Positions 2,004-33,643 of a stretch of 64,000 nucleotides of DNA are shown piece after piece. The position numbers and the translations under genes were made by a program. The notes under the pieces were generated by a model. The model was not told the DNA's origin. It searched no databases and was given only the letters and a program-made list of their open reading frames with translations. The stretch's first letter is position 1. Every line of letters starts with the position of its first letter. This stretch comes from Halomonas sp. GT (lineage in GTDB: Bacteria; Pseudomonadota; Gammaproteobacteria; Pseudomonadales; Halomonadaceae): NCBI RefSeq assembly GCF_002082565.1, contig NZ_CP020562.1:3100001-3164000 (forward strand), written 5' to 3'.

Positions 2004-2021
2004 CTGCGTCTCCTAGTGACC

Positions 2022-2997: not shown

Positions 2998-3045
2998 AGT
3001 GGTACACTTAGCGGCCTGTAAACGCGGCCAGTTAAAGGAGTCACG

Positions 3046-3432: not shown

Positions 3433-3815
3433 ACTGGCAAGCTTACCTAGCCGTTGGGGTTGGCAGCGGGCTTGGCAGTGCCCTTCGCTACGGGGTATCT
3501 CTGCTGTCTTTGGCAGCGCTTGGCGGCTATTTCCCTTGGGGTACACTGCTGGTTAACGTGCTGGGCTCTGGGGTCATCGGTTGGGTTGCCGCTACCGCTT
3601 CGCGTTTTCCTAACGGCAACTTGGCGCACTGGCAGCCGCTGTTAGTGGCCGGTTTTTGTGGCGGTTTTACCACATTTTCACTCTTTAGCCTGGAAACACT
3701 GCACCTTATTCAGCAAGGACTCTCTGGGCTAGCGCTGCTTTATGTACTTATCAGCCTACCGCTTTGGTTACTAGCAGTCTGGCTAGGAGAACGCATAGCG
3801 CTTTCTCGTCTATAA
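3429..3815 (+). CDS. crcB: CrcB/Fluc fluoride channel subunit 2
   Basis: A second 128-residue Fluc subunit, translationally coupled to the first through a 4-base overlap. Motifs are SGLGSALRYGVS, GTLLVNVLGSG and GGFTTFSLFSLET, equivalent to those of subunit 1 but with a clearly different sequence, as expected for a heterodimeric pair rather than a recent duplication. The family role is fluoride efflux across the inner membrane. It is followed after 13 bases by a transporter gene on the same strand, so all three are probably one transcript. Confidence 0.93.
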   Translation: MNWQAYLAVGVGSGLGSALRYGVSLLSLAALGGYFPWGTLLVNVLGSGVIGWVAATASRFPNGNLAHWQPLLVAGFCGGFTTFSLFSLETLHLIQQGLSGLALLYVLISLPLWLLAVWLGERIALSRL

Positions 3816-3828
3816 CCGTAGGTATTTT

Positions 3829-4803: not shown

Positions 4804-4807
4804 AAAA

Positions 4808-4839
4808 AACGCCGGCCCCTTAGCGTGGTGACCGGCGTT
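4808..4839. terminator. Bidirectional hairpin terminator
   Basis: AACGCCGG (4808-4815) pairs with CCGGCGTT (4832-4839) in an 8-bp GC-rich stem with a 16-base loop. Read on the minus strand the stem is followed by a run of T, so it best serves the leftward usp gene; it also follows the rightward transporter stop by 4 bases. Confidence 0.8.
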
Positions 4840-4855
4840 AAAGCGTGCGTATTGT

Positions 4856-5713
4856 TTAACGCAATATCAGTACTGGAATTCGGCTGCCGCGTAACATCGC
4901 TGTTGTGGTACTGCCGACCAGCAAGTGGCGAATACGCGAGTGGCCATAGGCGCCCATCACTAGAAGGTCGATAGCATGCTCCTTCTCGTACGCTTGCAAA
5001 GTGTCGTCTACCTCACCAGCGTGGATGGCGCCTTCGGCTTGGTGGCCAGCGTCGCGTAGCGTAGTCAGCGCCCACTCAAGTTCGCTGCGGTGCTCTGCGG
5101 TTTCAGCACCCACAATCAGCACATGGCATTCGGTACCTGCAAATAACGGCGAGCGCGCCAGCATCTCCACCCCTTTCCGGGCAGTTCTGCTACCGTCAAA
5201 CGCAATCAGTACCTTTTCAGGTTGCTTAAAGGCTTTAGGCACCATGAGAATTGGGCGGTGCATTTCACGCACCACACGCTCAAGGTTAGAACCTAGGTGG
5301 CCGCTGGCATGGTGAGCCGTTTCGCCACGCTTGCCTACCACCAATAAACGAATGTCTTTCTCTAGCGCTACCAAGGTTTCGACCAGCGTGCCGTTAAGCT
5401 GGCGAACAATGGGATCAACGACCCCATCTTCCACTGCCCGTGCCTTAGCAGCTTCCAACATGAGCTTGCCTTGCTCACGGTTCACCTTGGCGCGCTGCTC
5501 ATCAAGCTCGGAAAGCTCTTTCATCAAGCGCTCGCGGGCACCAAACCTTAGGTTACCTGACAAATTTTGTTCTTCTGGTACATCAGAATGATTATCCACC
5601 ACATGCACAAAGCTAAGCGGGGCATTTAATGCCAAGCTTGCCCAGGCGGCGTAGTCACAGATGCTTTCTGCATATTGGGAGCCATCAATCGCGGCGAGTA
5701 CGTGTTCAGTCAT
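4856..5713 (-). CDS. Tandem-domain universal stress protein (UspA family), copy 2
   Basis: A 285-residue paralogue of the protein encoded at 2022-2876, with the same two Usp domains and the same C-terminal GAYGHSRIRHLLVGSTT nucleotide-binding signature. It lies 19 bases downstream of a SulP transporter gene on the same strand, preceded by a good AAGGAG site, so the two are probably one operon; Usp domains and SulP carriers are repeatedly associated in bacteria. Role: cytoplasmic stress protein, possibly tuning the transporter. The two Usp genes, in the same orientation, bracket the crcB-crcB-ACR3 block. Confidence 0.9.
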   Translation of the reverse strand: MTEHVLAAIDGSQYAESICDYAAWASLALNAPLSFVHVVDNHSDVPEEQNLSGNLRFGARERLMKELSELDEQRAKVNREQGKLMLEAAKARAVEDGVVDPIVRQLNGTLVETLVALEKDIRLLVVGKRGETAHHASGHLGSNLERVVREMHRPILMVPKAFKQPEKVLIAFDGSRTARKGVEMLARSPLFAGTECHVLIVGAETAEHRSELEWALTTLRDAGHQAEGAIHAGEVDDTLQAYEKEHAIDLLVMGAYGHSRIRHLLVGSTTTAMLRGSRIPVLILR

Positions 5714-5732
5714 ATCGCTCTCCTTGCGGTGG

Positions 5733-7223
5733 TTAGTGGCCGCCCATCAGCTTTTCAACCGCCTCAGGGTCGTTGTGTACCGCGTAACGATCTACCACGG
5801 TGGCACTGGCTTCACTCAAGCCCACCAGTTCTACCTCGGTACCTTCACGGCGGAACTTAATCACCACACGATCCAGGGCTTGAACAGCGGTAATATCCCA
5901 GAAGTGGGCGCGGGAAAGGTTGATGGTGATCTTATCGATGCTCTCTTTAAAATCGAAGGCAGCAATAAAACGCTCAGAAGAGGCAAAGAACACTTGGCCA
6001 ACCACTTGGTATTCACGCTCTTTACCGGGCTCTACTTCTTTCGAGCCGATATACAGGATGTTGCCGACTTTATTAGCAAAGAACATCGCCGCCAGCAGTA
6101 CACCTACAAAGACACCAATTGCTAAATTGTGCGTCCCCACAGTCACCACCACTGTGGCTAGCATAACGATATTGGTACTCATCGGATGTTTTTTAAGGTC
6201 GCGAATCGACTCCCAGCTAAAGGTGCCTATCGATACCATGATCATGACTGCCACCAACGCTGCCATGGGAATCTGCGAGACCCAATCAGAGAGAAAGACC
6301 ACCATCAACAACAGAACAACACCAGCGATGAGCGTTGAGAGCCGAGTCCTGCCACCGGATTTTATGTTGATGACTGACTGACCAATCATTGCACAGCCTG
6401 CCATACCGCCCAGCAAACCCGATCCGATATTAGCGATACCCTGGCCTTTGCACTCACGGTTTTTATCACTGGGTGTATCCGTTAAGTCATCAACAATGGT
6501 GGCTGTCATCATAGATTCAAGAAGGCCCACCACCGCCAGCATGATGGCGTAGGGAAAGATGATCATCAGCGTTTCTAAATTAAGTGGCACATCAGGCCAT
6601 AAAAACATTGGCAGTGTATCGGGCAGTTCACCCATATCACCTACCGTGCGTATATCCATGCCACTTACCATATACACCCCGGTAAGCACCACAATGCATA
6701 CCAGGGGAGAAGGGATCGACTTTCCAATCGCAGGCAAGTACGGGAAGAGATAGATAATACCTAAGCCTGCTACCGTCATGGCATACACATGCCACGTTAC
6801 ATTAGTTAATTCAGGCAGTTGCGCCATGAAAATCAATATCGCTAGGGCATTCACAAATCCGGTGACCACCGAACGGGACACAAAACGCATCAACTCTGCA
6901 AGTTTTAAGTAGCCTGCGATAATCTGTAATACCCCAGTCAATAGCGTGGCCGCCAGTAGGTACTCAAGGCCATGTTCGCGCACTAAAGTAACCATCAGCA
7001 GTGCCATGGCACCGGTAGCTGCTGAAATCATACCTGGGCGACCACCGGTAAAGGCAATCACTACTGCGATACAAAATGAGGCGTATAGGCCCACTTTGGG
7101 GTCAACGCCCGCAATAATCGAAAATGCAATCGCTTCAGGAATTAGCGCTAGGGCAACAACAATGCCTGAGAGCGTGTCGCCTTTGATGTTAGAGAACCAC
7201 TCTTGCTTACTGAAAAGTGCCAT
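5733..7223 (-). CDS. SulP-family anion transporter with STAS domain
   Basis: A 496-residue inner-membrane carrier. It starts with the SulP signature ([20 protein letters not shown], then GLYASF and [14 protein letters not shown]), has about a dozen hydrophobic segments, and ends from about residue 390 in a cytoplasmic STAS domain. This short form, with a GTHNLAIGV segment before the STAS domain, is the branch that includes bicarbonate and sulfate carriers such as BicA; the substrate cannot be settled from sequence. The start ATG at 7223 is followed immediately by the first amphipathic helix. The Usp gene follows in the same direction. Confidence 0.88.
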
Positions 7224-20883: not shown

Positions 20884-22317
20884 TTAAATCGTAAAGGCGG
20901 CTTCTTGCTCGCCGGTTTTGAGATCTCCAGAGCGCACCAACTCATCCGTCACGCGATCAATGGCGCGCTTAGCGCGACCAATCATTTCGTCAACTTCACC
21001 ACGGTTAATGGTCAGTGGCGGTGCAAAGCCTAGAATATCGCCTTGAGGCATCGCACGGGCGATCAGGTTTTCTTCCATTGCCGCTGCGGCAACACGCGGG
21101 CCAACTTTCAACGCCGGGTCGAAATGCAGGCGCTGTTTGGCGTCTGGTGAGAACTCGAGAGCGGCCATTAGGCCAACACCGCGTACGTCGCCCAGCAATG
21201 GGTGGCCTTCAAAGGTGGCCTTGAGCTGCTGCTGGAAGTAACCGCCAGTTTCAGCAGAGTTACCCACTAGATTTTCGCGTTCGATAATATCCAAGTTAGC
21301 AAGACCAGCGGCACACCCTAGTGCGTGACCTGAATAGGTCCAACCATGACCGATGGGGCCAAACTCTCCGGTACCCTGTTCCAGCACCTTCCATACTTTA
21401 TCGCCAACAATCACGCCAGAAAGTGGCTGGTACGCACTGGTTAGCCCTTTAGCGATGGTGACCAAGTCAGGCTTCATGTTGTAGTGGTGGCTACCAAAGT
21501 CAGAGCCGGTACGGCCAAAGCCACACACGACCTCGTCGGCAATCAATAGTACGTCATACTTGTTTAGCACTGCTTGAATTGCATCCCAATAGCCTTCTGG
21601 CGGGGGCACGATACCACCCGTTCCCAGAACAGGCTCACCGATAAATGCCGCAACAGTGTCCGGGCCTTCTTCCAGAATCATCGCTTCCAGCTTATCGGCA
21701 CAGTAGGCAGAAAACTCGCGTTCTGTCATACCGTGCTGCTCTGCCGCGCGCAGATAGTAGTGCGGTGCTTCAGTGTGGCGAATGGTATCGATTGGCAGGT
21801 CAAAATGGTCGTGGAACGCTTTAAGACCGGTTAGTGAACCAGAAGCGATGCCGGAGCCGTGGTAACCGCGCATGCGCGAGATCACTTTTTTCTTCTGCGG
21901 ACGACCTAGCACGTTGTTGTAGTAGCGCACAATTTTGAGCTGTGTTTCGTTCGCATCAGAGCCTGACATGCCGTAGTAAACCTTGGACATGTTCATGCCG
22001 GCGATTTTTAGAATACGCTCAGAAAGCTCGATCTGCGGCTCGTTCGAGTGACCCACATAGGTGTGATAATAAGAAAGTTCTAGCGCTTGCTTATAGATTG
22101 CTTCGGCAACTTCGGTGCGACCGTAGCCGATATTGACGCAGTAAAGGCCCGCAAAACCGTCGATAAACTCACGGCCATCTTTGTCTACGATGTTAATGCC
22201 TTTGCCGCCAGTGATAACACGACCAGGCAAGTCGCCTTGGGCGAAGTCGCGCAGGTGAGTAGAGGCGTGAAAAGTGACTTTACGGTCGCGTTCGATCAGA
22301 TCCTGATGCAAGCTCAT
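20884..22317 (-). CDS. doeD: Diaminobutyrate transaminase DoeD (class III aminotransferase)
   Basis: A 477-residue PLP enzyme. Visible features: GLYCVNIGYG near the start, SGSDANETQLK for the phosphate-binding loop, ADEVVCGFGRTG, and the PLP-lysine segment TIAKGLTSAYQPLS near residue 290. Class III aminotransferases of this kind act on omega-amines. The role as DoeD, turning L-2,4-diaminobutyrate from ectoine into aspartate semialdehyde, rests on the neighbouring doeC and the doeA-doeB-doeX genes upstream. It lies 72 bases after doeC and ends at a clear terminator. Confidence 0.88.
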   Translation of the reverse strand: MSLHQDLIERDRKVTFHASTHLRDFAQGDLPGRVITGGKGINIVDKDGREFIDGFAGLYCVNIGYGRTEVAEAIYKQALELSYYHTYVGHSNEPQIELSERILKIAGMNMSKVYYGMSGSDANETQLKIVRYYNNVLGRPQKKKVISRMRGYHGSGIASGSLTGLKAFHDHFDLPIDTIRHTEAPHYYLRAAEQHGMTEREFSAYCADKLEAMILEEGPDTVAAFIGEPVLGTGGIVPPPEGYWDAIQAVLNKYDVLLIADEVVCGFGRTGSDFGSHHYNMKPDLVTIAKGLTSAYQPLSGVIVGDKVWKVLEQGTGEFGPIGHGWTYSGHALGCAAGLANLDIIERENLVGNSAETGGYFQQQLKATFEGHPLLGDVRGVGLMAALEFSPDAKQRLHFDPALKVGPRVAAAAMEENLIARAMPQGDILGFAPPLTINRGEVDEMIGRAKRAIDRVTDELVRSGDLKTGEQEAAFTI

Positions 22318-22389: not shown

Positions 22390-23886
22390 TCAACTACCAG
22401 ACACTGATCCTAAAGCCCCCAGGCAGTAGTACTTTGTTTCTAAATACTCATCGATACCGGTAGCGCCGCCTTCACGGCCAAGGCCGGACTGTTTCACGCC
22501 ACCAAAAGGCACCGGCGGACCTGTCATTTTCACGGAGTTAACGCTAACCATGCCATACTCCAGCGCGCGCATTAGCTTCCAGATACGGCGAATATCATGG
22601 GTATAGATATAGGCCGCTAAGCCGTATTCGGTGTCATTGGCCATTTCAATAACTTCGTCATCGGTACTATAAGCGGTAATACCGGCCACCGGGGCAAAGT
22701 TCTCTTCACGCCAGACTTTCATTTGCGGTGTTACGTTGGTCAACAGCACTGGCATAAAGAAGTTATCGCCCGGTGCTTGGCTCTGGTCACCAGCAATCAT
22801 CGTGGCGCCTTTGGAAATCGCATCATCAACAATCGATGCTGCTTTTTCGACTGCCTGACGATGAATTAGCGGGCCAAGGTCAACTTCACCGTGCAATCCG
22901 TTACCCACGGTAAGTGCCGCCATGCGCTCGGTAAATTGCTCGACAAACTCGTCGTGGATGGATTCGTGAACCAAAATGCGGTTGGCTGCTAAGCAATCTT
23001 GCCCAGCCGTTTGAAACTTAGCTGAGACTGCAGCATAGGCTGCCTCTTTGGGGTCCATATCCGGACCAACGATAAACGGCGCGTTGCCACCTAATTCCAG
23101 CGATAGCCGTTTGACCGTGTTTGCGCTCTGCTCAATCAGCAAGCGGCCAACACGGGTGGAGCCAGTGAAAGAGAGCGCCCGGATACGCGGCTCGCTGCAC
23201 AAAATTTTAGAGACTTCTGCAGGATCGCCCAGCACGACGTTAAAAATACCGTCTGGAATACCCGCACGCTCGGCAAGCTCCGCCAGCGCCAGCGCAGAGA
23301 ACGGCGTTTCATTGGCAGGCTTGATGATCACCGGACATCCAGCGGCCAACGCCGCTGCGGCCTTGCGGGTAATCATTGCCAGCGGGAAGTTCCACGGCGT
23401 AATCATCGCCGCAATACCTACTGGCTCCTTAATGGTGCCAAGTGATGCATTGGGGATATGGCTGGGAATGGTTTCACCATAGGTGCGCTTCCCTTCTTCA
23501 GCGAACCAGCGCACGAAACTGGCACCGTACTCTACTTCGCCACGGGCATCCGGCAGCGGCTTGCCCTGCTCCAACGTCATAATGGTGGCTAGATCTTCAC
23601 GGTTGGCTTGAATCAAGTCGTACCATGCCAACAAACGCTCGCAGCGCTCGTCAGCGCGTAGGGCACGCCACTGTACAAAAGCAGCTTCAGCAGCATCTAC
23701 GGCAGCGGTAATTTGCTGAGCTTCCAGCAAGGGAATGTGGCCAATGGTTTCATTTGTCGCGGGATCATACACCGCTTCTTCGCGGCCGCCGTCACCGTGG
23801 GTCCATTTACCGTATACGTAGGCGTACTGCCGAAACAGACGCGGATCTTCCAAGCGCTTAGTGAGCGTGGTCGATAGTGTGGTCAT
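22390..23886 (-). CDS. doeC: Aldehyde dehydrogenase DoeC (GabD family), aspartate-semialdehyde oxidation
   Basis: About 498 residues from the ATG at 23886, which has GGGGAGG 5-7 bases upstream; a longer frame would add an unlikely leader. It has the NAD(P) fold, LELGGNAPFIV with the general-base glutamate, and the catalytic cysteine in AGQDCLAANR. The sequence type is succinate-semialdehyde dehydrogenase (GabD). In Halomonas the homologous DoeC oxidises aspartate semialdehyde to aspartate, the last step of ectoine breakdown. The doeD neighbour supports this; a GABA role cannot be excluded. Confidence 0.87.
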   Translation of the reverse strand: MTTLSTTLTKRLEDPRLFRQYAYVYGKWTHGDGGREEAVYDPATNETIGHIPLLEAQQITAAVDAAEAAFVQWRALRADERCERLLAWYDLIQANREDLATIMTLEQGKPLPDARGEVEYGASFVRWFAEEGKRTYGETIPSHIPNASLGTIKEPVGIAAMITPWNFPLAMITRKAAAALAAGCPVIIKPANETPFSALALAELAERAGIPDGIFNVVLGDPAEVSKILCSEPRIRALSFTGSTRVGRLLIEQSANTVKRLSLELGGNAPFIVGPDMDPKEAAYAAVSAKFQTAGQDCLAANRILVHESIHDEFVEQFTERMAALTVGNGLHGEVDLGPLIHRQAVEKAASIVDDAISKGATMIAGDQSQAPGDNFFMPVLLTNVTPQMKVWREENFAPVAGITAYSTDDEVIEMANDTEYGLAAYIYTHDIRRIWKLMRALEYGMVSVNSVKMTGPPVPFGGVKQSGLGREGGATGIDEYLETKYYCLGALGSVSGS

Positions 23887-23974
23887 GGGCACCTCCCCAG
23901 GTTGCAGCCAATTACGGTGAAGCCAATCGGTGGCGACAAACCGTTGCACATAAAATGTTGCAATAAATATAGGT

Positions 23975-24003
23975 AAGCAGCCCAACGTTTCGATGGGCTG
24001 CTT
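23975..24003 (-). terminator. Hairpin between decarboxylase and doeC
   Basis: AAGCAGCCCA (23975-23984) and TGGGCTGCTT (23994-24003) form a 10-bp stem with a 9-base loop. It is about 120 bases past the decarboxylase stop and 90 bases before the doeC start, so it could end the upstream transcript, attenuate read-through or lie in the doeC leader. Confidence 0.55.
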
Positions 24004-24120: not shown

Positions 24121-26898
24121 TTAACCTGCTACGGGGTTAATCAAGGCCTCCTCAGTAAACACCACGAGTCCTAACTCCGGCCGATAGCCATGGATCTCAG
24201 TGACATCCAGCGCCTGAAGAAACGATAAAATCTCTTCGCTGATGACCTGCCCTGGTACTAATACCGGAAATCCTGGCGGATAAGGGATGACAAAACTTGC
24301 CGATACAACATCGCGACCGGCACGCATCTGCGCCTGTAACTTACCATTATCGAAGCGTAAGTATTCAGTATTCTCTTCGTCGTAACTTAGAAAGTAAGCG
24401 CAACGAATATCGCCCTGGGGCGTATCGGGATTCGGCCGGAAGGCGTCGTGGAAACGACTGAAGTCAGGTAGTGGCGGCAAATCATGATTCAGTGAATGCA
24501 CCTGATTTTCGATGATTTTACGCTCAGGACGGCTACTGTCTTCCAAGCGATACTCGAATTCTTTCGCCAATTTAATCAGCACATCCAGCAGGTAGGCAAT
24601 AGAGCCCCGTGTAGTGCCGATATTGGTCATAAACAGTACGGTGTTGCGGGACGTTTTGTTAATTTGAATACCGTACTTATTCATCAGGTATTCATTTTTG
24701 AATGTGTCGCCATCAACCCCAGTATTGCCGATGGCAATCGTGACACGGGAAGGATCAACAACAAACTCATCTCGCGCCCAGGCTTCCTCCATTTTGTTCC
24801 AGCCCGTCACTGGGTCAAAATAGGACTCGACACCCGACTCTCGGTAGGCTTCGGGTACCATGTCGCTATTCTTCAATACGCGAAAATACTTCTGCAGCAA
24901 GGGATGGGTGTAGAGTTGTTCGCGTAGGGAAAGCGCCGTCTCTACCTGCGCATGCACCAGTTCGAACCCTTCCATTTCCGCCTGCATTCTTCCCACATCC
25001 AGCGATGCTACAATTTGATAGTTGGGCGAAGTAGATGTGTGAGTCATGTAGGCTTCATGGAAAGAAGCCTCCACTTTCTGACGAAAATCTTGATCCCACA
25101 CGTGAATCATTGAGCCTTGGCGTAACGAGGTCAGCGTTTTGTGGGTTGAGTGAGTCGCATAAGTGCGAATACGTACTTCATCCGGGTCGGGCATCAATCG
25201 CTGGTCAAGCCATGTAGCATCGTCTTCTGGATCGAGCTTATCGAACTCGGCTTTCCAAGCCGCATACTCTTCCCGATAACTCTCACTGCGGTAACGATCC
25301 CGTAATGTCCGTGCCGCATTCATGGCGGTCCGTGGCCGATACGTCGGGTTAAAGCCAGCGAAGGCAAACCATGCTTCATCCCAAAGAAAAACCAGATCTG
25401 GTTTTATCGCCAAGCATTCTTCCATCACCCGGCGCACGTTATACACAATGCCATCGAAGGTGCAGTTGGTCAGCAACAACATCTTCACCTTGTGAAGTTC
25501 GCCGGAGCGCTTGTAGGCGAGCAGCGTTTTCTTTATTTCATGCAGCGGCACAGCACCGTACATGGAATAGTCATCAAGTGGATAGGAGTCTAGATAACTG
25601 ACATGTGCACCGGCTAACACCATGCCGTAATGATGCGATTTGTGACAGTCACGGTCGATCAGCACAATGTCTCGCGGCTTAATAAGCGCCTGTACCACAA
25701 TTTTATTAGCCGTAGACGTGCCATTGGTTACAAAGAAACTACGACGCGCTCCAAAGGCTCGGGCAGCGTACTCTTGTGCCTTTTTGATTGGCCCGAACGG
25801 TTGCAACAGCGAGTCTAGCCCCCCCGATGTTGCTGATGTTTCTGCTAGAAAAATATTAATGCCGTAGAAGTCGATCATGTGCCCTGCCCAGTGGGACCGA
25901 GTCACCGACTTGCCCCTGGAAATGGGCATGGCATGGAATACCCCTGTAGGCTTCCTACTGTATTCACGCAGAGCATCAAAAAACGGTGTGCGATAGCGAT
26001 TATCAATGGCGCGTAGAATCGTATGATGCTGCTCGATGTAATCCGTTTCACGGTAGAAGATACGGTTGAAGTGCTTAATATCTCGGCTTGCCGTGGCTTC
26101 AACATCACCACTAGTCACCAGAAATTGATCAATTTCTGGGCGCAGCTCATGAATCATCGAACTCAGCAGAATACTGCGTTCAGCTTCGCTATGGTGCTCT
26201 AGCTCATTTTCTGAGAGACCTTCCAGATAATTACGCAAAGCACTGAGGTTATACTTAGACTTATACGGAAACTCGTAGCGAATCAGACATGCTTGTATAT
26301 TAGGATTCACCAATATGGCAATCAACGCATCTTCAAAGCTTTTTACCGTCACAACATCGTAAACAAAGCGATCCTCAGGACGACGCATGTTGTGAAATGC
26401 TTCACGCACCACATCTTCTTCCTGGTTAGAAAGGTTATCTACGATCAGCAGTTCAAAGTAAGGTTGCGCCGAGCTATTGGAAGCCGGGTGCCCGCGGCGA
26501 AGTTGATTTAGGGCGTCCAGTGCCTCCATGTCTTCAGCACCTGCATCCGTCTCAGAGAGATCCACATGTCGTCGACGATAGGACTCACTGATCAACGCTC
26601 TTACCAAACGCTTAACGACTTTATCCAACAGTGCGTATTCACCGCGATTGAATAGTGTCCAAAGGTGGCGAAAATCCTCTTTGGATGGAAATGCATGATA
26701 GTCCTCAATAATCTCTAAGCGTGTCAACTTGATGTCGATAGCTTTAATCAAGTTCTTGGCGCGATCCTCTTCTTTAAGGCGCGTCAAAATACCCAAATCA
26801 CGCTTAAGCTCATTCCAGGTATCAGCACGAAGTTGGGAAATTTTGTGATAAAAACCCAGGGCGGTGTAGGAAGTTTCGGTTGGATTATTCTCTTGCAT
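24121..26898 (-). CDS. Large Orn/Lys/Arg-type PLP decarboxylase with long N-terminal region
   Basis: About 925 residues from the ATG at 26898, which has an AAGGA site upstream. Residues 1-140 are helical and charged, without a match I recognise. Residues 148-215 (ELLIVDNLSNQEEDVV...) look like the receiver-like wing domain of this family. The PLP core runs from about 340: NGTSTANK, DRDCHKSHHYG, LWDEAW (D507) and HSTHKTLTSLRQGS with the Schiff-base lysine K587. A C-terminal domain follows from about 800. Inducible LdcI/AdiA enzymes are 715-760 residues, so this is unusually long. The reaction is probably decarboxylation of a basic amino acid or derivative; the substrate is unknown. It is last in a four-gene set. 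Confidence 0.85.
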   Translation of the reverse strand: MQENNPTETSYTALGFYHKISQLRADTWNELKRDLGILTRLKEEDRAKNLIKAIDIKLTRLEIIEDYHAFPSKEDFRHLWTLFNRGEYALLDKVVKRLVRALISESYRRRHVDLSETDAGAEDMEALDALNQLRRGHPASNSSAQPYFELLIVDNLSNQEEDVVREAFHNMRRPEDRFVYDVVTVKSFEDALIAILVNPNIQACLIRYEFPYKSKYNLSALRNYLEGLSENELEHHSEAERSILLSSMIHELRPEIDQFLVTSGDVEATASRDIKHFNRIFYRETDYIEQHHTILRAIDNRYRTPFFDALREYSRKPTGVFHAMPISRGKSVTRSHWAGHMIDFYGINIFLAETSATSGGLDSLLQPFGPIKKAQEYAARAFGARRSFFVTNGTSTANKIVVQALIKPRDIVLIDRDCHKSHHYGMVLAGAHVSYLDSYPLDDYSMYGAVPLHEIKKTLLAYKRSGELHKVKMLLLTNCTFDGIVYNVRRVMEECLAIKPDLVFLWDEAWFAFAGFNPTYRPRTAMNAARTLRDRYRSESYREEYAAWKAEFDKLDPEDDATWLDQRLMPDPDEVRIRTYATHSTHKTLTSLRQGSMIHVWDQDFRQKVEASFHEAYMTHTSTSPNYQIVASLDVGRMQAEMEGFELVHAQVETALSLREQLYTHPLLQKYFRVLKNSDMVPEAYRESGVESYFDPVTGWNKMEEAWARDEFVVDPSRVTIAIGNTGVDGDTFKNEYLMNKYGIQINKTSRNTVLFMTNIGTTRGSIAYLLDVLIKLAKEFEYRLEDSSRPERKIIENQVHSLNHDLPPLPDFSRFHDAFRPNPDTPQGDIRCAYFLSYDEENTEYLRFDNGKLQAQMRAGRDVVSASFVIPYPPGFPVLVPGQVISEEILSFLQALDVTEIHGYRPELGLVVFTEEALINPVAG

Positions 26899-26962
26899 GA
26901 CGACACCCATCCTTTGTAGGTATTTATCTGGAAAAGACACTTGCCTCAGCAACAGTGCTAAA

Positions 26963-28000
26963 TCAGCCGTACAGCCCACGTGAGCCATAGCGAACGGTAA
27001 TTTGCTCTTCAGGAAACACATCGAAGTTCAAATCCAACACTCTACCGGGCCAGCGGAACTGAGTAAGTCTTTCCTTGGTGCGATATACCGCGGTATACAC
27101 TGTGCCCAGACCACGCCGATAGTCATGACGAAACAAAGGGGGAGCGGAAAAAGCCGAAATTAGTCGCTCTTCAGTGGTGGCATCGTCGTCCACCAGAATC
27201 GAAAGCTGACGCTCGCGAATCAAGGTTTCAGAGGCCAGCGCATGGGCATACCATTCGATTTTCTTTTGGTGATTGGTAGCCACCGCCACCCGCCGAATGC
27301 TAGCGCGGCAATCAGGAGCAATCATCGCCGTGACATAACGACCTGAGGCGTCTGCCACGGTAATGTTGTAGGCCATATGGGTAGGCACCCTCGCGAGCAC
27401 CGCAGCTGCTTCGGGCACGGTATCGCAGAACTCAAGGATATAGCGAAGAATTATCGGAGCACCGAAGCCATCCCCCACCACCTTGCGCCCACCGAACGCT
27501 AGAGAAACAGCAAGTCCTGAATCGTTCATCCCGTCTAGCACGCCCCACAGGCAATCAGACATGGCGATAACACGGCGCTGATTCCACCGAGTGTAGAGAA
27601 TAGTGCCCTCGCACAGCTCCGGCGGGTAGTCATAGTTGCGTGCCAACACGGTTGACATCGGCCTTGTTAGCACCGCCTGTGAGCAACCGGTAATATATGG
27701 CGGCGGACGGTACAAACTCAGTAGCCGCGACGAAAGATCCCCTCCACCAGCTACTTCACATAACGTGCGGTAAGTAGCCAGCAGTTCGGGCATGTGCTTG
27801 CGTAAGGCGTTATGACACTCTAAATAAGAGGGACGCTCACGCTCACCTTCGGCCAGATACCAAGGCTCATAGGCAGGCCAGTGGTAATGGAACAACGACT
27901 GCCATTTTGGCCCCGCCACTTCTTCGTGCACAGTGCGAAACGTCAGTGCCTTGTCCAGCTCCACACCAGGCGCTCGGCCCGCAGCAAAGTTGCTGTCCAT
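26963..28000 (-). CDS. C45-type autoproteolytic acyltransferase/hydrolase
   Basis: A 345-residue Ntn-hydrolase of the peptidase C45/acyl-CoA:6-aminopenicillanate acyltransferase type. The likely new N-terminal nucleophile is C106 in ITGCSQAV, followed by ARNYDYP (120-126) and GVLDGMNDSGLAVS (153-166), the usual core motifs, and TNH further on. Family members cut themselves before the cysteine and then hydrolyse or form amide bonds. The ATG lies 2 bases after the ATP-grasp stop, with little of a ribosome site, suggesting coupled translation. Amidase or N-acyltransferase activity is inferred; the substrate is unknown. Confidence 0.8.
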   Translation of the reverse strand: MDSNFAAGRAPGVELDKALTFRTVHEEVAGPKWQSLFHYHWPAYEPWYLAEGERERPSYLECHNALRKHMPELLATYRTLCEVAGGGDLSSRLLSLYRPPPYITGCSQAVLTRPMSTVLARNYDYPPELCEGTILYTRWNQRRVIAMSDCLWGVLDGMNDSGLAVSLAFGGRKVVGDGFGAPIILRYILEFCDTVPEAAAVLARVPTHMAYNITVADASGRYVTAMIAPDCRASIRRVAVATNHQKKIEWYAHALASETLIRERQLSILVDDDATTEERLISAFSAPPLFRHDYRRGLGTVYTAVYRTKERLTQFRWPGRVLDLNFDVFPEEQITVRYGSRGLYG

Positions 28001-28002
28001 GA

Positions 28003-29474
28003 TTAAAGGATTTTAAAGTTGCCACCGCCGATAGCATGGCTGACGGCAACTTCCTCCACCACTGGATCTTGCAATGCCTGTCCGGTGTACTGACCACGAA
28101 TGCCGTCTATCCAAGCCTTGGCACGCTCGTTCAACTGGAAGTCATCATCCATTAACCGTCCTCGGGTAATCAAAATACCCAGGTCGGCCCCTTCATACCG
28201 GAAGTCTCCTGCGCCACTAATACGCAGAAAAAAGGCTTCCTGCTCGTTCTCTGCCGCATGAGGGTGATAGCTATAATGATCATAGGCAATCTCGCCCTGA
28301 TCATTCATGCGCCATACGCCGGTAGTAGGCGCCTGCGTTAACAAGTCAACGCTTTCATCGGTATGCTTGATAACCAGCTGGCTCCAGCTGTCGACACTTT
28401 CAGGATGCGCCCAACGCTCATTGATATCATTGATATCCAGGTCAAAATCGACATCCGAAAACTCAAGCAGGTGAAACAGGAACAGTGGAATATCAGAATG
28501 AGCAAAAGCCGCCACATTCGTCAGGGAGCTTGCCCCTGTCACGCGGGGGTTAAGTTCGCCTAGATACACTTCATTGGTATCCATATCGATCAGAAAATCG
28601 AGTTCAAAATATCCTCGATAGCCTTCTTCGCGCAGTGCCTCACCAAATTTAAAGGTGTATTCACGCGCTAAATCACGTACTTCCTGACTAAAGGCGCCAG
28701 CGAACATTTCGTTGCCACACCAACCACCCTTATAAGGAGTCAATGTTTTGAAACCTACAAGCTCTGTCATCAGCGGGCCAACGACCGTACCGCAACGCGT
28801 GGCACATGCTTCTATCGCTGAGCCGCGACAGTTGATGCGCTTCATGATCTTGACCTCGGGCTCGGCTTCGATCTCTTCAGCATGCTTGTAATAGTCTTCT
28901 TCACTGGCAATAAAGAAGGTGGTGTGCCCAGAATCGCCAAACGCGGTCTGTACCACTAAATCGTTACCGAGCGACTCGCTGACCTCTAGAAGCTCCTGAT
29001 AACTGCCTACTCTGGCCAACACGTTGGGCACGCTGGGCACGCCGGCTTTGTTGCCAATACGCACTGTCTCAATTTTATTATCCATCCGCTTGCGCAGTTC
29101 TGCGGGGGGAAGGCAACCCGCAGACCCAACTGCTCACAAATTTCTTCAGTGTGCTCATCGAACATTAAAAACGATGCCACCCCAGCACTTTCGCTGTTGG
29201 CTCGTGATTGAATGAAATCAATGACTTCTTTGTGTTCAAGCAGATAGTTATTAATGTCTTCAATGCTCTCGAAGTCGCGGGGGAACTTCTGTTTAGGCAC
29301 GAAGACATTTCGCTGCTTGCCTTCAAAGCAGTCGATATAGTTAATATGCCGGAAGCTACCTACCCAATCACCGATACCTAGAAGGTTGAAGTTCGTCGCA
29401 GAAATAAAGTAGATCGGCTCTTTATTATTTAGGAAATGTCTACGAACATCTGCAATGGACGTTATTTTATTCAT
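28003..29474 (-). pseudogene. ATP-grasp ligase (biotin-carboxylase-like), interrupted by a one-base frameshift
   Basis: Read across the frameshift, this is a protein of about 490 residues starting at the ATG 29474 (AAGGAG 8 bases upstream). Residues 1-120 form a pre-ATP-grasp domain; the rest is an ATP-grasp fold with NKAGVPSVPN, VVQTAFGDSGH and the metal-binding ELNPRVTG. The two frames join at a run of six C on the coding strand (29104-29109): adding one C gives LRVAFPPAELRKRMDNK without a break. As written, the second part can only start at 29085. ATP-grasp enzymes join a carboxylate to an amine. It may be a true null, a phase-variable gene or a sequencing error. Confidence 0.75.
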
Positions 29475-29628
29475 TGTTTTCGCTCCTTGTATGACAGGTA
29501 CTGAAAGCTGTGTGGAACTAGTGCTGCCTAGGAGTTTCGCTAAATATCGCGATATTCGCCTAAATTGATCATCCAGCTTGGCGCGAAATCCGTTCTTCTC
29601 GTGATGATGGGTCAAGCCAAATAGACTC

Positions 29629-30498
29629 CTAAAAAATGTCTTGGTCAGTACGTACGGGTTTAGCAAGTGGTCCTAAAGTGTCAAGGAAAGGAGAGGATCC
29701 ATTTTCGCTACGGTATATCGAGAAATCGACTTCACGGTCACGGAAACTTTTCAGTGGCTGTCCCAAACCGCGCAATCCTGTTTCGCGCTCGCGGCGGACG
29801 CGGTTTAGGTCAATTTCGATAGGCATGACCTCTTCCCCTATCCCCGCTTGATGAATCACGTCGCCAGAGGGACCAACGACGATAGAGCGTCCATTTCCCA
29901 ACGCGCCAGCGCCATTGATATCGAAGAAGTAACACTGGTTAATCGCCGCATTGGTGCGAGCAATTGATAGCTCAATATCTCGGTCAATGGTATCCGTCAT
30001 AGTGGGGTGAAGAATGACTTCAGCCCCCATTGAGGCCAATGTACGAGTCGTTTCGGGAAACCACATGTCATAACAGATAGAAACGCCAAAGCGTCCTATC
30101 GTTGGTACATCAAAGACCACAAATTCACTGCCGCCCTCTACGCCAGCTTCGTAAGGTCGGAACGGGAACATTTTGCGATAACGCGTTACAACTTGGCCAA
30201 GGGGGTTAATGACTACCAGTGTATTGTAGGTATGTTCGCCTACTTGCTCGAACATTGAGCCTGGAATTAACCAAATGCGGTGTTGCGCAGCCAGTTGGCA
30301 AAAAAATGCTTCGGTATCGCTGGGCAACGTTTGAGCATGGAGCGGTGAAGCTCCCATTGGCATTAATTCGCTGAACAGCACCATTTGAACCTGAGGAAAA
30401 CGGTTCATTAGCGCATCGATCCGATGGCGCATAGCCTCGGTATTGTCGCCATGGTGCAGGGCATGCATTTGAACACCGGCAATGGTGAAATATGACAT
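29629..30498 (-). CDS. Nitrilase-superfamily carbon-nitrogen hydrolase
   Basis: A 289-residue cytoplasmic hydrolase with the complete catalytic triad of the superfamily: E44 in LFSELMPMG, K109 in YRKMFPF, and C142 in VSICYDMWFPE. C-terminal YRSENGSSPF and a short tail extend slightly beyond the fold. The type suggests an amidase or N-carbamoyl hydrolase rather than a true nitrilase. It is first of four co-directional genes (hydrolase, ATP-grasp, C45, decarboxylase) inserted between doeX and doeC, with a 155-base gap before the next start. The substrate is unknown. Confidence 0.85.
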   Translation of the reverse strand: MSYFTIAGVQMHALHHGDNTEAMRHRIDALMNRFPQVQMVLFSELMPMGASPLHAQTLPSDTEAFFCQLAAQHRIWLIPGSMFEQVGEHTYNTLVVINPLGQVVTRYRKMFPFRPYEAGVEGGSEFVVFDVPTIGRFGVSICYDMWFPETTRTLASMGAEVILHPTMTDTIDRDIELSIARTNAAINQCYFFDINGAGALGNGRSIVVGPSGDVIHQAGIGEEVMPIEIDLNRVRRERETGLRGLGQPLKSFRDREVDFSIYRSENGSSPFLDTLGPLAKPVRTDQDIF

Positions 30499-30573: not shown

Positions 30574-30677
30574 TAGTGGTGAATGGCCTCAATTTTCATG
30601 TTAAGCCAACGGAACGCTGAAATGGCGTTGATCAAGCACCTGGATAAATTGTTAAATTCGATTTACACAGGCCAATA

Positions 30678-31154
30678 TTATAAAAAGTCGTTCGATCCAA
30701 TACCTGGCTCGGTTCGTTTGACCGACTTAGTGACGATATAGGTGAAATAACGTTCTATTCCCACATCGGAGATCAACCAACTATCGATCAAACGTTGATA
30801 ACTGTCGATGGAAAACACTTCAAACTTCACCAGATAATCTACACCGCCACCTACCGCTACGCACTCTGTGGCATCTGGCGTTTGCATGACTAACGCTTCA
30901 AAGCGGGAAAAACTCTCAGCATTGTGCTGTTTGAGCTCGATCTGCACCCATACGGCGTTGCGTGGCATTAACACATCGGCATTAATGCGCGCTGTATATC
31001 CTTCGATAACGCCCGCATTTTCCAGACGTTTCACTCGCTCCCAGCAGGGACTCACCGAGAGGTTGATGGCTTCAGCTAACTTCGACTTAGTGATTCGTCC
31101 ATCTCGAGAGAGAATATCGAGAATTTTTAAATCATAACGGTCCAGTTTCATCAT
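30678..31154 (-). CDS. doeX: Lrp/AsnC-family regulator DoeX
   Basis: A 158-residue regulator. The N-terminal winged helix (LDRYDLKILDILSRDGRITKSKLAEAINLSVSPCWERVKRLE) and the C-terminal RAM ligand-binding domain (DATECVAVGGGVDYLVKFEV) are clear. The ATG pair at 31154/31151 is the likely start; a GTG at 31166 would overlap the doeB stop. In H. elongata DoeX sits in the doeABX operon and binds the ectoine gene region, so a role in inducing ectoine use by a pathway intermediate is likely. The coupling to doeB supports this. Confidence 0.9.
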   Translation of the reverse strand: MMKLDRYDLKILDILSRDGRITKSKLAEAINLSVSPCWERVKRLENAGVIEGYTARINADVLMPRNAVWVQIELKQHNAESFSRFEALVMQTPDATECVAVGGGVDYLVKFEVFSIDSYQRLIDSWLISDVGIERYFTYIVTKSVKRTEPGIGSNDFL

Positions 31155-31162
31155 GCTGGTTG

Positions 31163-32197
31163 TCACGCTTCCAGGCGTTCAACAACATCGGCAATCACCG
31201 CCAGGGTGTCCCCCATATTGATCAACGATGGCGCACGGCGAGCCATCAATATGCCGTCACGCTCCGCTTTGTACGCCACAGGAGCGGTGCCGCTACGGGT
31301 CATATCGTAGACATAGGCAATGGTTTGGCCTTTTTTCACCTCATCACCCAACGCCACTAACAGCTCTAACACCCCAGAGTGCTGGCTTTGCACGTAGCAG
31401 CTGGCATCTGGCATATCGAGATACATTTGCCCTGCTTCAGGCATTTCTACCGAGCCTTCCACCAAGCCGTAATGAATCAAAAAGTTGCGTACACCACGTT
31501 CAGCAATCGCAATACTTTGAGGCGTGGACGTACCGCCGCCGCCAAGCTCAGTGGCAACAAACACTTTGCCTTGGCGCTCACAGGCAGTATCGAACAGCTT
31601 TTCTGCATCTAGCTCAAACATCACCATCGCGTAGGGAGCACCGAACGCTTTAGCGCCTTCCAGCGCCGCCTGCTGTTGAGACTTATCGTCTAAAACATGA
31701 GAAGCGCCGAACGGCAATATATCCAGCGTGCGGCCACCAGAGTGCAAATCGAGGACTACATCGCTAATAGGAACCAGCACGCGGGTAAAATAATCAGCGA
31801 TTTGCGACGTTACGGTGCCGTTTGGATCCCCTGGAAAACTACGATTCAAGTTGCCTTTATCCATCGGCGACGTGCGCTTTCCGGCCATGACGGCTGGCGT
31901 GTTCATACACGGCACAATAATCACCCGACCACTTACCTCTTCCGCTTTCAACGTGGAAGAGAGCTTTAACAGTGACGTTATGCCTTCATATTCATCGCCA
32001 TGATTACCGCCAGTTAGCAGTGCCGTTGAGCCTTCGCCATTTTTAACCACAGTGATAGGGATCATCACCGCACCCCAGGCAGACTCATCGGTCGAAATCG
32101 GCAGCTTTAAAAAGCCGTGCTGTACGCCATCGGCGTCGAAATCAACAGTGGCGGAAATAGGGCTGGGCCGCAGTTGGTTCGGTTGGAGCGTCATCAT
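31163..32197 (-). CDS. doeB: N-alpha-acetyl-L-2,4-diaminobutyrate deacetylase DoeB
   Basis: A 344-residue zinc deacetylase of the succinylglutamate desuccinylase/aspartoacylase family. TGGNHGDEYEG gives the HxxE zinc site near residue 65, DLHSGG gives the third ligand, and ATELGGGG carries the catalytic region. It removes the acetyl group from N-alpha-acetyl-diaminobutyrate made by DoeA. It lies 24 bases downstream of doeA and overlaps or abuts doeX. Assignment by sequence type and gene order is strong. Confidence 0.93.
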   Translation of the reverse strand: MMTLQPNQLRPSPISATVDFDADGVQHGFLKLPISTDESAWGAVMIPITVVKNGEGSTALLTGGNHGDEYEGITSLLKLSSTLKAEEVSGRVIIVPCMNTPAVMAGKRTSPMDKGNLNRSFPGDPNGTVTSQIADYFTRVLVPISDVVLDLHSGGRTLDILPFGASHVLDDKSQQQAALEGAKAFGAPYAMVMFELDAEKLFDTACERQGKVFVATELGGGGTSTPQSIAIAERGVRNFLIHYGLVEGSVEMPEAGQMYLDMPDASCYVQSQHSGVLELLVALGDEVKKGQTIAYVYDMTRSGTAPVAYKAERDGILMARRAPSLINMGDTLAVIADVVERLEA

Positions 32198-32221: not shown

Positions 32222-33421
32222 CTACTTAACAAACAGCTGGCGCGGAAAATTAGCCAGGGTTTCACAGCCATTTTCAGTAATCAGAATACTTTCGGTAATT
32301 TCTAGACCCCAGTCTTCCACCCAGAGCCCTGGCATGAAGTGAAATGTCATGCCGGGCTGAAGGATAGTGTCGTCAGAGGGGCGTAAACTCATTGTGCGCT
32401 CGCCCCAATCTGGTGGGTACGAGATACCAATGGGATAGCCACAGCGCGCGCCACCACGGTCAAAACCGTATTTATCCATCGCCGCACCTAGCGCCATAGC
32501 AATATCTGCCGTACGGTTTCCCGGCTTAGCCACGGCCAACCCACTCTCAATACCTTCCAGCAAAGCGGATTCAGCACGAATAAAGTCTGTCGGCGGCGTT
32601 CCTAAAAATACGGTGCGCGACATCGGCGCGTGGTAGCGCTTGAAGACACCAGCAATTTCAAAGAAAGTGCCCTCGCCTTTGCGAAATGGCGTGTCGTCCC
32701 AGGTAAGGTGCGGCGCAGCAGCGTCTTTACCGGTTGGCAGCATCGGAACAATAGCTGGGTAATCACCGCCAAACACTTTGCCATTCTCGTCGACAAACCC
32801 CTCGATGCCGACGCGATAAATTTCCGACACCAGCTTACTCTTTGGCAAGCCGGGTTCAATAACTTCCAAAATACGCGTGTGCATCCCTTCAACAATTTTT
32901 GCTGCCACACGCATATAAGCTATTTCTTGCGGCGACTTAATCGCCCTGCACCAATTCACAAGTGCGTTGGCATCCATAAAACGCGCATGAGGAAGCTCAC
33001 GCAAAAGGCTTTGATAGGCTTTAGCAGAGAAGTAGTAGTTATCCATCTCCATGCCCACTACACCGGTATGCCAGCCACGGTCGGGCATAATCGATTGGGC
33101 AAGATACTCCATTGGATGCATATCCGGATTTTGAACATAGTAATCCGGATAGTAGGTAATATTATCGGGGTCTATCCAGCAGGTGCGCAGCGCGCCGTTG
33201 GCATCCATACGGCGGCCAAACCATACAGGTTCGCCTTCAAGGCCCACCAATACGCATTGATGAACGTAAAATGACCAACCGTCGTAGCCGGTCAACCACG
33301 CCATGTTGGAGGGGTCACTGACGATCAGCACGTCAATGCCACGGCCAGCCATTTCTGCACGCACCTTCCACAAGCGATTAGCATACTCTTCACGTGTGAA
33401 AGGCAGGGAAACCTCAGTCAT
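32222..33421 (-). CDS. doeA: Ectoine hydrolase DoeA
   Basis: About 399 residues from the ATG at 33421 (MTEVSLPFTREEYANR), the form typical of DoeA; upstream codons at 33436 and 33439 lack a ribosome site. It has the creatinase/M24 'pita-bread' fold: an N-terminal domain with SNMAWLTGYDGWSFYVHQ and a C-terminal catalytic domain with GEGTFFEIAGVFKRYHAPMSR. DoeA opens the ectoine ring to N-acetyl-diaminobutyrate. It heads the leftward cluster and is divergent from ghrA, so the promoter should lie in 33422-33640. Confidence 0.93.
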   Translation of the reverse strand: MTEVSLPFTREEYANRLWKVRAEMAGRGIDVLIVSDPSNMAWLTGYDGWSFYVHQCVLVGLEGEPVWFGRRMDANGALRTCWIDPDNITYYPDYYVQNPDMHPMEYLAQSIMPDRGWHTGVVGMEMDNYYFSAKAYQSLLRELPHARFMDANALVNWCRAIKSPQEIAYMRVAAKIVEGMHTRILEVIEPGLPKSKLVSEIYRVGIEGFVDENGKVFGGDYPAIVPMLPTGKDAAAPHLTWDDTPFRKGEGTFFEIAGVFKRYHAPMSRTVFLGTPPTDFIRAESALLEGIESGLAVAKPGNRTADIAMALGAAMDKYGFDRGGARCGYPIGISYPPDWGERTMSLRPSDDTILQPGMTFHFMPGLWVEDWGLEITESILITENGCETLANFPRQLFVK

Positions 33422-33643
33422 CGGGCAACTCGCCATCAAAGATCACTAAGAACCAGCGCCATCTATTGTAAGTTAGGTACGCTGGGCCACAGGATCGACC
33501 TGGCCACCCCCGCAGTAGGCCTGCCAATGTCGTCTTAAGGCGATACTAGCACCGACCCTTGGTTGCCGGTCAAAGCCTTTATGACAAAAATAGTGGTAAG
33601 CCGTGGTAGCGTAACCATAGTTAACATGCAGTCAGGAGGAAAA

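What the first reader, a model, noticed from the sequence alone, without database searches (positions are those of the whole stretch)
24121..30498. Four-gene amide-bond/decarboxylase module lodged inside the ectoine degradation cluster
Between doeX and doeC lie a nitrilase-superfamily amidase, an ATP-grasp ligase, a C45-type Ntn acyltransferase/hydrolase and a large Orn/Lys/Arg-type decarboxylase, all in the doe direction with gaps of 2-155 bases. One ATP-driven amide maker, two amide-cutting enzymes and one amine-forming enzyme is the tool set of a pathway that builds an amide-linked amino acid, decarboxylates it, and trims it back, much as gamma-glutamylated polyamines are handled. As I recall, the doe genes of H. 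elongata are directly adjacent without these four. Hypothesis: the module diverts or recycles a diaminobutyrate/ectoine-linked intermediate, or makes a polyamine-type solute. The substrates are unknown to me.
Basis: partly seen in the sequence, partly recalled or inferred. Interest (0 to 1): 0.78.

Follow-up and report, generated by a model that had tools for sequence, protein, structure and literature searches.

The report
Portable four-enzyme amide operon, function unknown
Four neighbouring genes in a salt-loving bacterium form a portable enzyme set that turns up as a unit in many marine bacteria, often near genes for using GABA; the ectoine-degradation genes around it look like a local address rather than its general job, and what it makes or breaks down is still unknown.

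Summary
They are one unit. Of 151 Halomonadaceae genomes the same 40 carry all four and 110 none; one has divergent ligase and C45 copies. In all 40 the unit is on the doe strand near doeA. The ectoine link is not general: 93 of 133 doe-bearing genomes lack it. Among 80 loci found through the ligase, mostly Alpha- and Gammaproteobacteria, the usual order is nitrilase, decarboxylase, ATP-grasp, C45, and only the two Halomonadaceae loci have doeA/B/X. Frequent neighbours are TRAP-type transporters and GABA transaminase. In 17 genomes with the ligase, 6 have a GABA transaminase within 12 kb of it (0.09 expected by chance). My reading is an uncharacterised amide-ligation, decarboxylation and deacylation module that feeds omega-amino-acid (GABA-type) transamination; in Halomonas doeD/doeC may supply the last steps. 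Substrates are unproven. No paper describing the set was found. It is a new combination of known enzyme families, not shown to be an ectoine shunt.

The parts
29629..30498 (-). Nitrilase-superfamily amidase (NIT), 289 aa
   Evidence: PF00795 110.8 bits; E44, K109, E117, C142 invariant in 16 of 16 aligned homologues; best named family N-carbamoylputrescine amidase is far below cut-off, 81 against 410 bits
28003..29474 (-). ATP-grasp ligase (ATPG), frame-broken near 29.10 kb in this genome; C-terminal part 28003-29085, N-terminal part from 29474
   Evidence: open frame of 500 aa or more in 40 other Halomonadaceae genomes; model of homologue P0023 has the biotin carboxylase/PurK/PylC fold
26963..28000 (-). 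C45-type Ntn acyltransferase/hydrolase, 345 aa
   Evidence: NF040521 185.7 bits against cut-off 85; C106-S107, RN-D and NHQ motifs invariant in 19 of 19
24121..27021 (-). Large Orn/Lys/Arg-type PLP decarboxylase (DEC), ORF of 966 aa; true start probably near 26.9 kb
   Evidence: PF01276; full-length relatives in PDB 9n0n/9n0o/9n0p; K628 and N788 invariant in 18 of 18; 26 of 40 family matches begin at residue 36-40
30678..31166 (-). doeX, Lrp/AsnC regulator
   Evidence: position as in H. elongata
31163..32197 (-). doeB
   Evidence: TIGR02994 above cut-off
32222..33439 (-). doeA
   Evidence: TIGR02993 above cut-off
22390..23985 (-). doeC, SSADH-like aldehyde dehydrogenase
20884..22317 (-). doeD, class III aminotransferase
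   Evidence: NF005684 above cut-off; PF00202
30613..30629 (.). Inverted-repeat block AACGC-N7-GCGTT, 114 bases before NIT; candidate operator of the module
   Evidence: found in the 260 bases before NIT in 7 of 24 loci, all seven in the window's genus; before doeA 0 of 43, before doeC 0 of 38

Best explanation
The four genes are a portable, self-contained catabolic or salvage module of amide chemistry. In Halomonadaceae it sits at the boundary between the doeABX and doeCD transcription units. Inferred chemistry: the ATP-grasp enzyme joins an amino acid to a partner through an amide (gamma-glutamyl-like) bond; the large PLP decarboxylase removes the alpha-carboxylate of that masked amino acid; C45 and the nitrilase-type amidase cleave the amide bonds and free an omega-amino acid such as GABA. 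A class III transaminase and a succinate-semialdehyde-type dehydrogenase take that product into central metabolism: GabT and SSADH elsewhere, possibly DoeD and DoeC in Halomonas. Shown: the four-gene unit, its all-or-none inheritance in the family, its occurrence without doe genes, and its association with GABA transaminase. Counted without a control: the association with uptake systems. Inferred: the order of reactions, the substrates and the direction. In this particular genome the ligase gene is broken, or misread by the assembly, so the module may be inactive here.
For: All-or-none: DEC 40 of 151, NIT 40 of 151, C45 41 of 151, strong ATPG 41 of 151; the same 40 genomes have all four, and the extra one (G044) has a divergent ATPG-C45 pair. 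In the 40, the ATPG and doeA matches are on one strand, 3.1-3.5 kb apart in 39 and 10.5 kb in one. Outside: 71 of 80 loci gave a called ATPG ORF; NIT-DEC-ATPG-C45 in 36 of 71, DEC-ATPG-C45 in 16 of 71. GABA link: 6 of 17 genomes have an over-cut-off TIGR00700 gene within 12 kb of ATPG (11 of 17 have any), expected 0.09; 16 of 24 scanned class III transaminases near the module match GABA-transaminase models at E<=1e-120. SSADH-like dehydrogenases 47-52% identical to DoeC lie near in L078, L079, L107, L142, L157 and L159. Uptake: one cluster of DctM-type permeases in 27 of 80 and one of NMT1-like binding proteins in 19 of 80 loci (one member of each scanned). A DoeD-like transaminase (61%) lies 2 kb from ATPG in L104, where no doeA/B/X was labelled. 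Residues: the Glu of the VVEKT motif in solved Arg and Lys decarboxylases is Asn788, invariant in 18 of 18, which fits a masked side chain (the role of that Glu is recalled).
Against: No substrate, product or mutant is known. 5 of the 11 genomes with a GabT have it elsewhere, among them the window's own (nearest 442 kb) and the Marinobacter-type one (74 kb); 6 of 17 have no over-cut-off GabT at all. Two of the six near cases (G289, G415) have ATPG homologues of only 45-46%. The 12 kb limit was chosen after the distances were seen; at 50 kb the excess remains (expected 0.36, P 4e-7), but the genomes are related to one another. Thiofilum (L083) has NIT, ATPG and C45 with no DEC in its 21 kb, beside genes that look like arginine to 4-guanidinobutyrate conversion (DEC was not sought elsewhere in that genome). 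NIT homologues are in only 51 of 80 loci (many loci are cut short). The ligase fold does not separate amide ligation (PylC) from N-carboxylation (biotin carboxylase, PurK).
Confidence: 0.4

Rival explanations
1. Polyamine-type pathway: DEC makes a diamine or agmatine-like amine from a basic amino acid; ATPG adds an acyl or amino-acyl group as protection; neighbouring transaminase and dehydrogenase oxidise it; C45 removes the protecting group; NIT acts as a carbamoyl- or omega-amidase. An analogue of the Puu pathway built from other enzyme families.
For: DEC's nearest named families are Arg/Lys/Orn decarboxylases; NIT's best named hit is N-carbamoylputrescine amidase; L083 has an arginine-route neighbourhood (5-guanidino-2-oxopentanoate decarboxylase, arginase-family enzyme, amino acid permease); GABA transaminase linkage.
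Against: No oxidase is part of the conserved set; a glutamine-synthetase-family neighbour was seen in 1 locus (L097); the VVEKT glutamate of Lys/Arg enzymes is Asn in 18 of 18; DEC is far below the cut-off of each of the six Arg/Lys/Orn models listed.
Confidence: 0.28
2. Biosynthetic module for a small amide-linked compound (a GABA- or amine-capped dipeptide used as osmolyte, signal or defence compound); the transporters move the product or a precursor.
For: An ATP-grasp enzyme plus an acyltransferase-type C45 would suit small-molecule assembly (established knowledge of the families); marine and halophile hosts among the record titles; PylC among the nearest folds, tied with biotin carboxylases.
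Against: Neighbours seen are import-type systems of several kinds (TRAP, peptide-binding ABC, amino acid permease) and catabolic transaminases; two stand-alone amidase-type enzymes in one set favour breakdown.
Confidence: 0.17
3. One reading: the module diverts or recycles diaminobutyrate or an N-acyl derivative made during ectoine degradation.
For: 40 of 40 module genomes in Halomonadaceae carry it on the doe strand near doeA, and in 19 of 19 fetched loci it lies between doeX and doeC; presence needs 9 changes on the doeA tree of 40 rows (4 forced by well-supported branches), yet the site is always the same.
Against: 93 of 133 doe-bearing genomes lack it; 78 of 80 loci from the ligase scan have no doeA/B/X; the candidate operator before NIT was not found before doeA or doeC; the doeX-doeC interval takes other genes (PMC6815383, passages).
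Confidence: 0.1

Closest known systems
Puu gamma-glutamylputrescine pathway (PuuA-E; recalled)
   Same: ATP-driven amide formation, amide hydrolysis, end in GABA transaminase and SSADH
   Different: Ligase here is ATP-grasp, not glutamine-synthetase type; hydrolase is C45 Ntn, not class I amidotransferase-like; adds an OKR-type decarboxylase and a nitrilase; no oxidase in the conserved set
Butirosin side-chain assembly (BtrJ/BtrK/BtrG; recalled)
   Same: ATP-grasp loading of glutamate, PLP decarboxylation of the gamma-glutamyl adduct, later trimming
   Different: There the carrier is a protein and the decarboxylase is of another fold; no carrier protein was among the 40 neighbour proteins scanned
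Rv2531c, solved decarboxylase without known activity (PDB 9n0n/9n0o/9n0p)
   Same: Full-length homologue of DEC including the N-terminal region (918 profile positions, 1051 bits) and the same INKTS motif
   Different: Lacks the invariant Arg792 of this set (Ile in its place); whether it has ATPG, C45 or NIT partners was not examined
PylC, lysine/D-ornithine amide ligase (4ffl, 4ffr)
   Different: 9% identity; biotin carboxylase and PurK structures score the same, so the fold does not fix the reaction
Ectoine degradation cluster doeABXCD of H. elongata
   Same: Same flanking genes in the same order (PMC3187862, passages)
   Different: The four genes are absent there; [quoted passage not shown]

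Membership tests
Orn/Lys/Arg decarboxylase, major domain (PF01276) | Profile score above Pfam cut-off and PLP lysine | tested here: met
   256 bits against 27; K628 in 18 of 18 (assignment as PLP lysine is recalled)
Arginine, lysine or ornithine decarboxylase models (NCBIfam) | Score above curated cut-off | tested here: not met
   six models listed, best 207.8 bits against 968; VVEKT Glu replaced by Asn
C45 autoproteolytic acyltransferase/hydrolase | NF040521 above cut-off and conserved Cys nucleophile | tested here: met
   185.7 against 85; C106 in 19 of 19 (role recalled)
Nitrilase superfamily (PF00795) | Profile above cut-off and E-K-C triad | tested here: met
   110.8 against 23.2; E44, K109, C142 in 16 of 16 (roles recalled)
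N-carbamoylputrescine amidase AguB | TIGR03381 above cut-off | tested here: not met
   81 against 410.25
NF005096 (PRK06524) ATP-grasp family | Score above curated cut-off | tested here: inconclusive
   561.8 against 684 on the C-terminal part only, matching positions 140-482 of 493; the gene is frame-broken here and an intact homologue was not scanned
Amide-ligating ATP-grasp (PylC-like) | Amide ligase activity and substrate pocket | tested here: inconclusive
   fold shared equally with biotin carboxylase and PurK; activity not testable
Puu pathway | Ligase of glutamine-synthetase type (PuuA) and PuuD-type hydrolase in the set | tested here: not met
   ligase is ATP-grasp, hydrolase is C45
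Puu pathway | GABA transaminase linked | tested here: met
   6 of 17 genomes within 12 kb, expected 0.09; not linked in the window's own genome
Ectoine degradation (doe) pathway | Gene set tied to doe genes wherever it occurs | tested here: not met
   absent from 93 of 133 doe-bearing genomes; 78 of 80 loci lack doeA/B/X
Ectoine degradation (doe) pathway | Substrate is ectoine, N-acetyl-diaminobutyrate or diaminobutyrate | not testable with these tools
   needs enzyme assays or mutants

The most novel reading that the evidence does not exclude
A previously undescribed route in marine Proteobacteria in which an ATP-grasp enzyme builds a gamma-glutamyl-type amide, a new subfamily of large PLP decarboxylases decarboxylates the amide-masked amino acid, and C45 and nitrilase enzymes release GABA or a close analogue for GabT/SSADH. 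It would also give the first functional lead for the Rv2531c-like decarboxylases, and would show that Halomonas wires this route into the doeD/doeC end of ectoine degradation.
Probability: 0.22. Interest if true: 0.75.

Novelty: new variant of a known kind. Interest (0 to 1): 0.6.

Why it matters
A four-enzyme operon that stays together in Alpha- and Gammaproteobacteria, is gained or lost as a unit in Halomonadaceae and has no function found for it in the searches made here marks a missing piece of nitrogen and carbon metabolism in marine and salt-loving bacteria. It comes with a testable lead (GABA-type amino acids and their amides), a solved relative of its decarboxylase, and named species with intact copies. 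It also shows that position inside a well-known cluster can mislead about function.

Tried and rejected
Ectoine-only role: rejected as the general function because the set occurs without doe genes outside Halomonadaceae and is missing from most doe-bearing genomes of the family.

Conventional Arg/Lys/Orn decarboxylase plus unrelated neighbours: rejected because of the all-or-none co-inheritance and operon conservation, and because DEC scores far below the six such models listed.

Cyanophycin-type dipeptide decarboxylation: an early guess about 9n0n, dropped when PMC12910592 showed 9N0O to be Rv2531c. That paper says the activity was not clarified; the structure paper itself is not held.

Structure of DEC: the model was poor (pLDDT 58.9, pTM 0.38) and was not used for any fold search.

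Shared regulation with doeA: the inverted repeat before NIT was not found before doeA (0 of 43) or doeC (0 of 38). The promoter and terminator scan was not informative (9 promoters found, 12.4 expected; 12 terminators found, 8.9 expected).

Fold comparison: families absent from the listing are not excluded by it.

Literature. In the listings I saw no paper describing the four-gene set; many subscription papers are not held. Papers seen: PMC12910592, PMC4569260, PMC3187862, PMC6815383 and PMC5924519, passages only; all others, search listing only.

Not followed: neighbours of L160 and L161 (their Pfam call failed); the Betaproteobacteria- and Planctomycetota-titled loci beyond gene labels; the third protein search was not used.
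Full report
WHAT IS THERE. On the minus strand the window holds doeA (32222-33439), doeB (31163-32197), doeX (30678-31166), then a nitrilase-type amidase (NIT, 29629-30498), an ATP-grasp protein (ATPG, 28003-29474), a C45 Ntn enzyme (26963-28000) and a large Orn/Lys/Arg-type decarboxylase (DEC, 24121-27021), then doeC (22390-23985), doeD (20884-22317) and a HAD protein. DoeA and DoeB score above their curated cut-offs. The ATPG gene changes frame near 29.10 kb beside a six-base run, so the window has two pieces instead of one gene; the 40 other Halomonadaceae genomes with a strong match have an open frame of 500 aa or more there. The DEC ORF runs too far upstream: it overlaps C45 by 59 bases, 26 of 40 family matches begin only at residue 36-40, and 8 of those that begin earlier read through stop codons, so translation probably starts near 26.9 kb.

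IS IT A UNIT? The same draw of 151 Halomonadaceae genomes was searched with each protein. DEC matched in 40 (E<=1e-150), NIT in 40 (E<=1e-60), C45 in 41 (E<=1e-10) and ATPG in 43, of which 41 are strong and 2 are short 30% matches. The same 40 genomes carry all four; the extra strong ATPG/C45 genome is G044, with divergent copies (50% and 44%) beside an amidase-signature-type protein (family named through a relative). The other 110 have none of the four at these limits, apart from the two short matches. DEC is in 7 of the 24 genera drawn. In all 40, the ATPG and doeA matches are on the same strand, 3.1-3.5 kb apart in 39 and 10.5 kb in G111. DoeA over the family cut-off is in 133 of 151, so 93 doe-bearing genomes lack the set. 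Of the 39 other genomes with the set I fetched the neighbourhoods of 19: in 19 of 19 the four genes lie between doeX and doeC in the same order, in two of them with 1.5-2.8 kb extra before doeC. Of the genomes without the set I fetched 20: doeX and doeC are within about 0.3 kb in 7, separated by 1-8.6 kb in 9, and no doeC was found in the stretch in 4. On a tree of 40 DoeA proteins (20 with, 20 without) presence needs 9 changes, 4 of them forced by well-supported branches; shuffled labels need 13.7 on average. One insertion with repeated loss, or exchange of the whole segment by recombination in the flanks, would explain a single site with so many changes; I cannot tell these apart. Pairwise distances of NIT, ATPG and C45 follow each other closely (Spearman 0.82-0.87); their agreement with DEC and the doe genes is lower (0.33-0.72; 19 loci).

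IS IT PART OF ECTOINE DEGRADATION? H. [quoted passage not shown] The position is therefore a boundary between two transcription units. That boundary also holds other things: an unrelated divergent operon in L043, L052 and L055 and a diguanylate cyclase gene beside doeX in H. hydrothermalis Y2 (PMC6815383, passages). The first row of A1 was not from Halomonas, so the ranking favours loci outside Halomonadaceae, and records very near the window's genome may be left out. With my own ORF caller and BLAST labels, DEC homologues are in 71, C45 in 65 and NIT in 51 of the 80 loci; many loci are cut by contig ends. In the 71 loci with a called ATPG ORF the same-strand runs read NIT-DEC-ATPG-C45 in 36, DEC-ATPG-C45 in 16, DEC-ATPG in 6, ATPG-C45 in 5, NIT-ATPG-C45-DEC in 3, and five other arrangements once each; the one locus titled Betaproteobacteria (L099) shows only ATPG-C45 at a contig end. 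DoeA, DoeB and DoeX relatives at high identity occur only in the two Halomonadaceae loci (L090, L125); three others have a DoeA label at 21-27%. The Halomonas gene order also occurs in Marinobacter maritimus (L129) and in G575 (L162; its contig length equals that listed for the Marinobacter changyiensis protein) without doe genes. In wider draws ATPG at E<=1e-30 is in 10 of 369 genomes of the class and 11 of 398 of the phylum, own genome included in both: rare and patchy.

WHAT DOES IT KEEP COMPANY WITH? Recurrent neighbour clusters in the 80 loci are a DctM-type fused permease (27 loci), an NMT1-like binding protein (19; I call this pair TAXI-TRAP from memory), a universal stress protein (11) and class III aminotransferases (28) (one member of each of the first three was scanned with Pfam). 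I have no background count for these transporters. Single loci show peptide-type binding proteins, amino acid permeases, a citrate-type transporter, a glutamine-synthetase-family protein and others. Of 30 class III transaminases I scanned 24 (six were left out: one the Halomonadaceae DoeD, one an overlong ORF, four cut at a locus end): 16 match GABA-transaminase models at E<=1e-120, 7 match NF005685 and 1 matches NF005684, the family of DoeD. The last is most likely L104, whose transaminase is 61% identical to the window's DoeD and lies 2 kb from ATPG with no doeA/B/X labelled in its 21 kb. To test the GABA link without choosing loci, I searched TIGR00700 in all 16 non-Halomonadaceae genomes that searches had found, plus the window's genome. 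11 of 17 have an over-cut-off gene; in 6 of 17 it lies within 12 kb of ATPG (5.2-10.0 kb), in five of these as the genome's only over-cut-off copy; 0.09 were expected. With a limit of 50 kb it is still 6 against 0.36 expected. Against: 5 of the 11 with a GabT have it elsewhere, including the window's genome (442 kb) and G575 (74 kb), and 6 of 17 have none. The 12 kb limit was set after seeing the distances, the genomes are related, and in two of the six (G289, G415) ATPG is of a divergent type (45-46%). In Thiofilum flexile (L083) NIT, ATPG and C45 lie beside an amino acid permease, an arginase-family protein, a 5-guanidino-2-oxopentanoate decarboxylase (NF005712, 770 bits against 500), an aldehyde dehydrogenase, a D-amino-acid dehydrogenase and a racemase-like fusion, with no DEC in the 21 kb. 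From memory this is an arginine to 4-guanidinobutyrate to GABA neighbourhood.

REGULATION. In the window's genus an inverted repeat (AACGC-N7-GCGTT, window 30613-30629) lies 114-132 bases before NIT in 7 of the 24 loci examined, all seven in that genus; two other loci of the genus with the module (L035, L041) lack the exact form. It is not found in the 260 bases before doeA (0 of 43) or doeC (0 of 38). With the separate doeABX transcript of H. elongata this suggests that the set has its own control. It is a weak clue: by my rough estimate one such match in 64 kb is not far from chance, and the seven genomes are close relatives.

HOW IT PROBABLY WORKS. A conserved amide maker, two amide cutters and a decarboxylase whose substrate pocket differs from the free-diamine enzymes, next to importers and GABA transaminases, best fit a module that masks an amino acid as an amide, decarboxylates it and releases an omega-amino acid. 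In Halomonas the transaminase and dehydrogenase downstream are DoeD and DoeC, relatives of the GabT/SSADH types seen elsewhere, which would explain why this position was kept in all 40 genomes. Only the genomic facts are shown; the reactions are inferred. I put this at 0.40, a polyamine-type variant at 0.28, a biosynthetic role at 0.17 and the ectoine-specific role at 0.10.

NOVELTY. The enzyme families are known; I found no description of this combination, which search only the held open-access papers. I file it as a new variant of a known kind: masked-amino-acid pathways such as Puu or butirosin side-chain assembly (both recalled) are the models, but the module fails the defining enzyme types of Puu.

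Noticed in passing
window 29.10 kb: The ATP-grasp gene changes frame beside a six-base run in this genome; the 40 other Halomonadaceae genomes with a strong match have it open. Real loss or assembly error cannot be told apart here.
   Followed up: partly
L043, L052, L055 between doeX and doeC: An unrelated divergent set of genes (about 360-365, 373-390, 648-670, 421-450 and 215-237 aa; the long one has a GxxGxGKT-type motif by eye in L043 and L055) lies in the same doeX-doeC interval in other Halomonadaceae; L052 was matched by gene sizes only. An insertion-prone spot.
   Followed up: partly
L051 (G044) 1412-5818: A divergent ATP-grasp/C45 pair lies beside an amidase-signature-type amidase instead of the nitrilase; L157 also has one near its C45. 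The two amidase types may replace each other.
   Followed up: partly
L083 (Thiofilum flexile): NIT, ATPG and C45 without DEC in the 21 kb, beside an apparent arginine to guanidinobutyrate operon that includes a racemase-arginase-like fusion of 622 aa.
   Followed up: partly
L142 and L111: Two C45 genes near one module; in L142 the second carries a C-terminal extension, in L111 the second is on the other strand.
   Followed up: no
Halomonadaceae genomes: 54 of 151 have a PF01276 decarboxylase: the 40 with the module show only DEC at this limit, 11 others have a conventional enzyme (open frames of 725-787 aa) and 3 a weaker 472-aa match.
   Followed up: no
window 30613-30629: Inverted repeat upstream of NIT, present in 7 of 9 same-genus module loci and not found before doeA and doeC; possible site of an unknown regulator.
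   Followed up: partly
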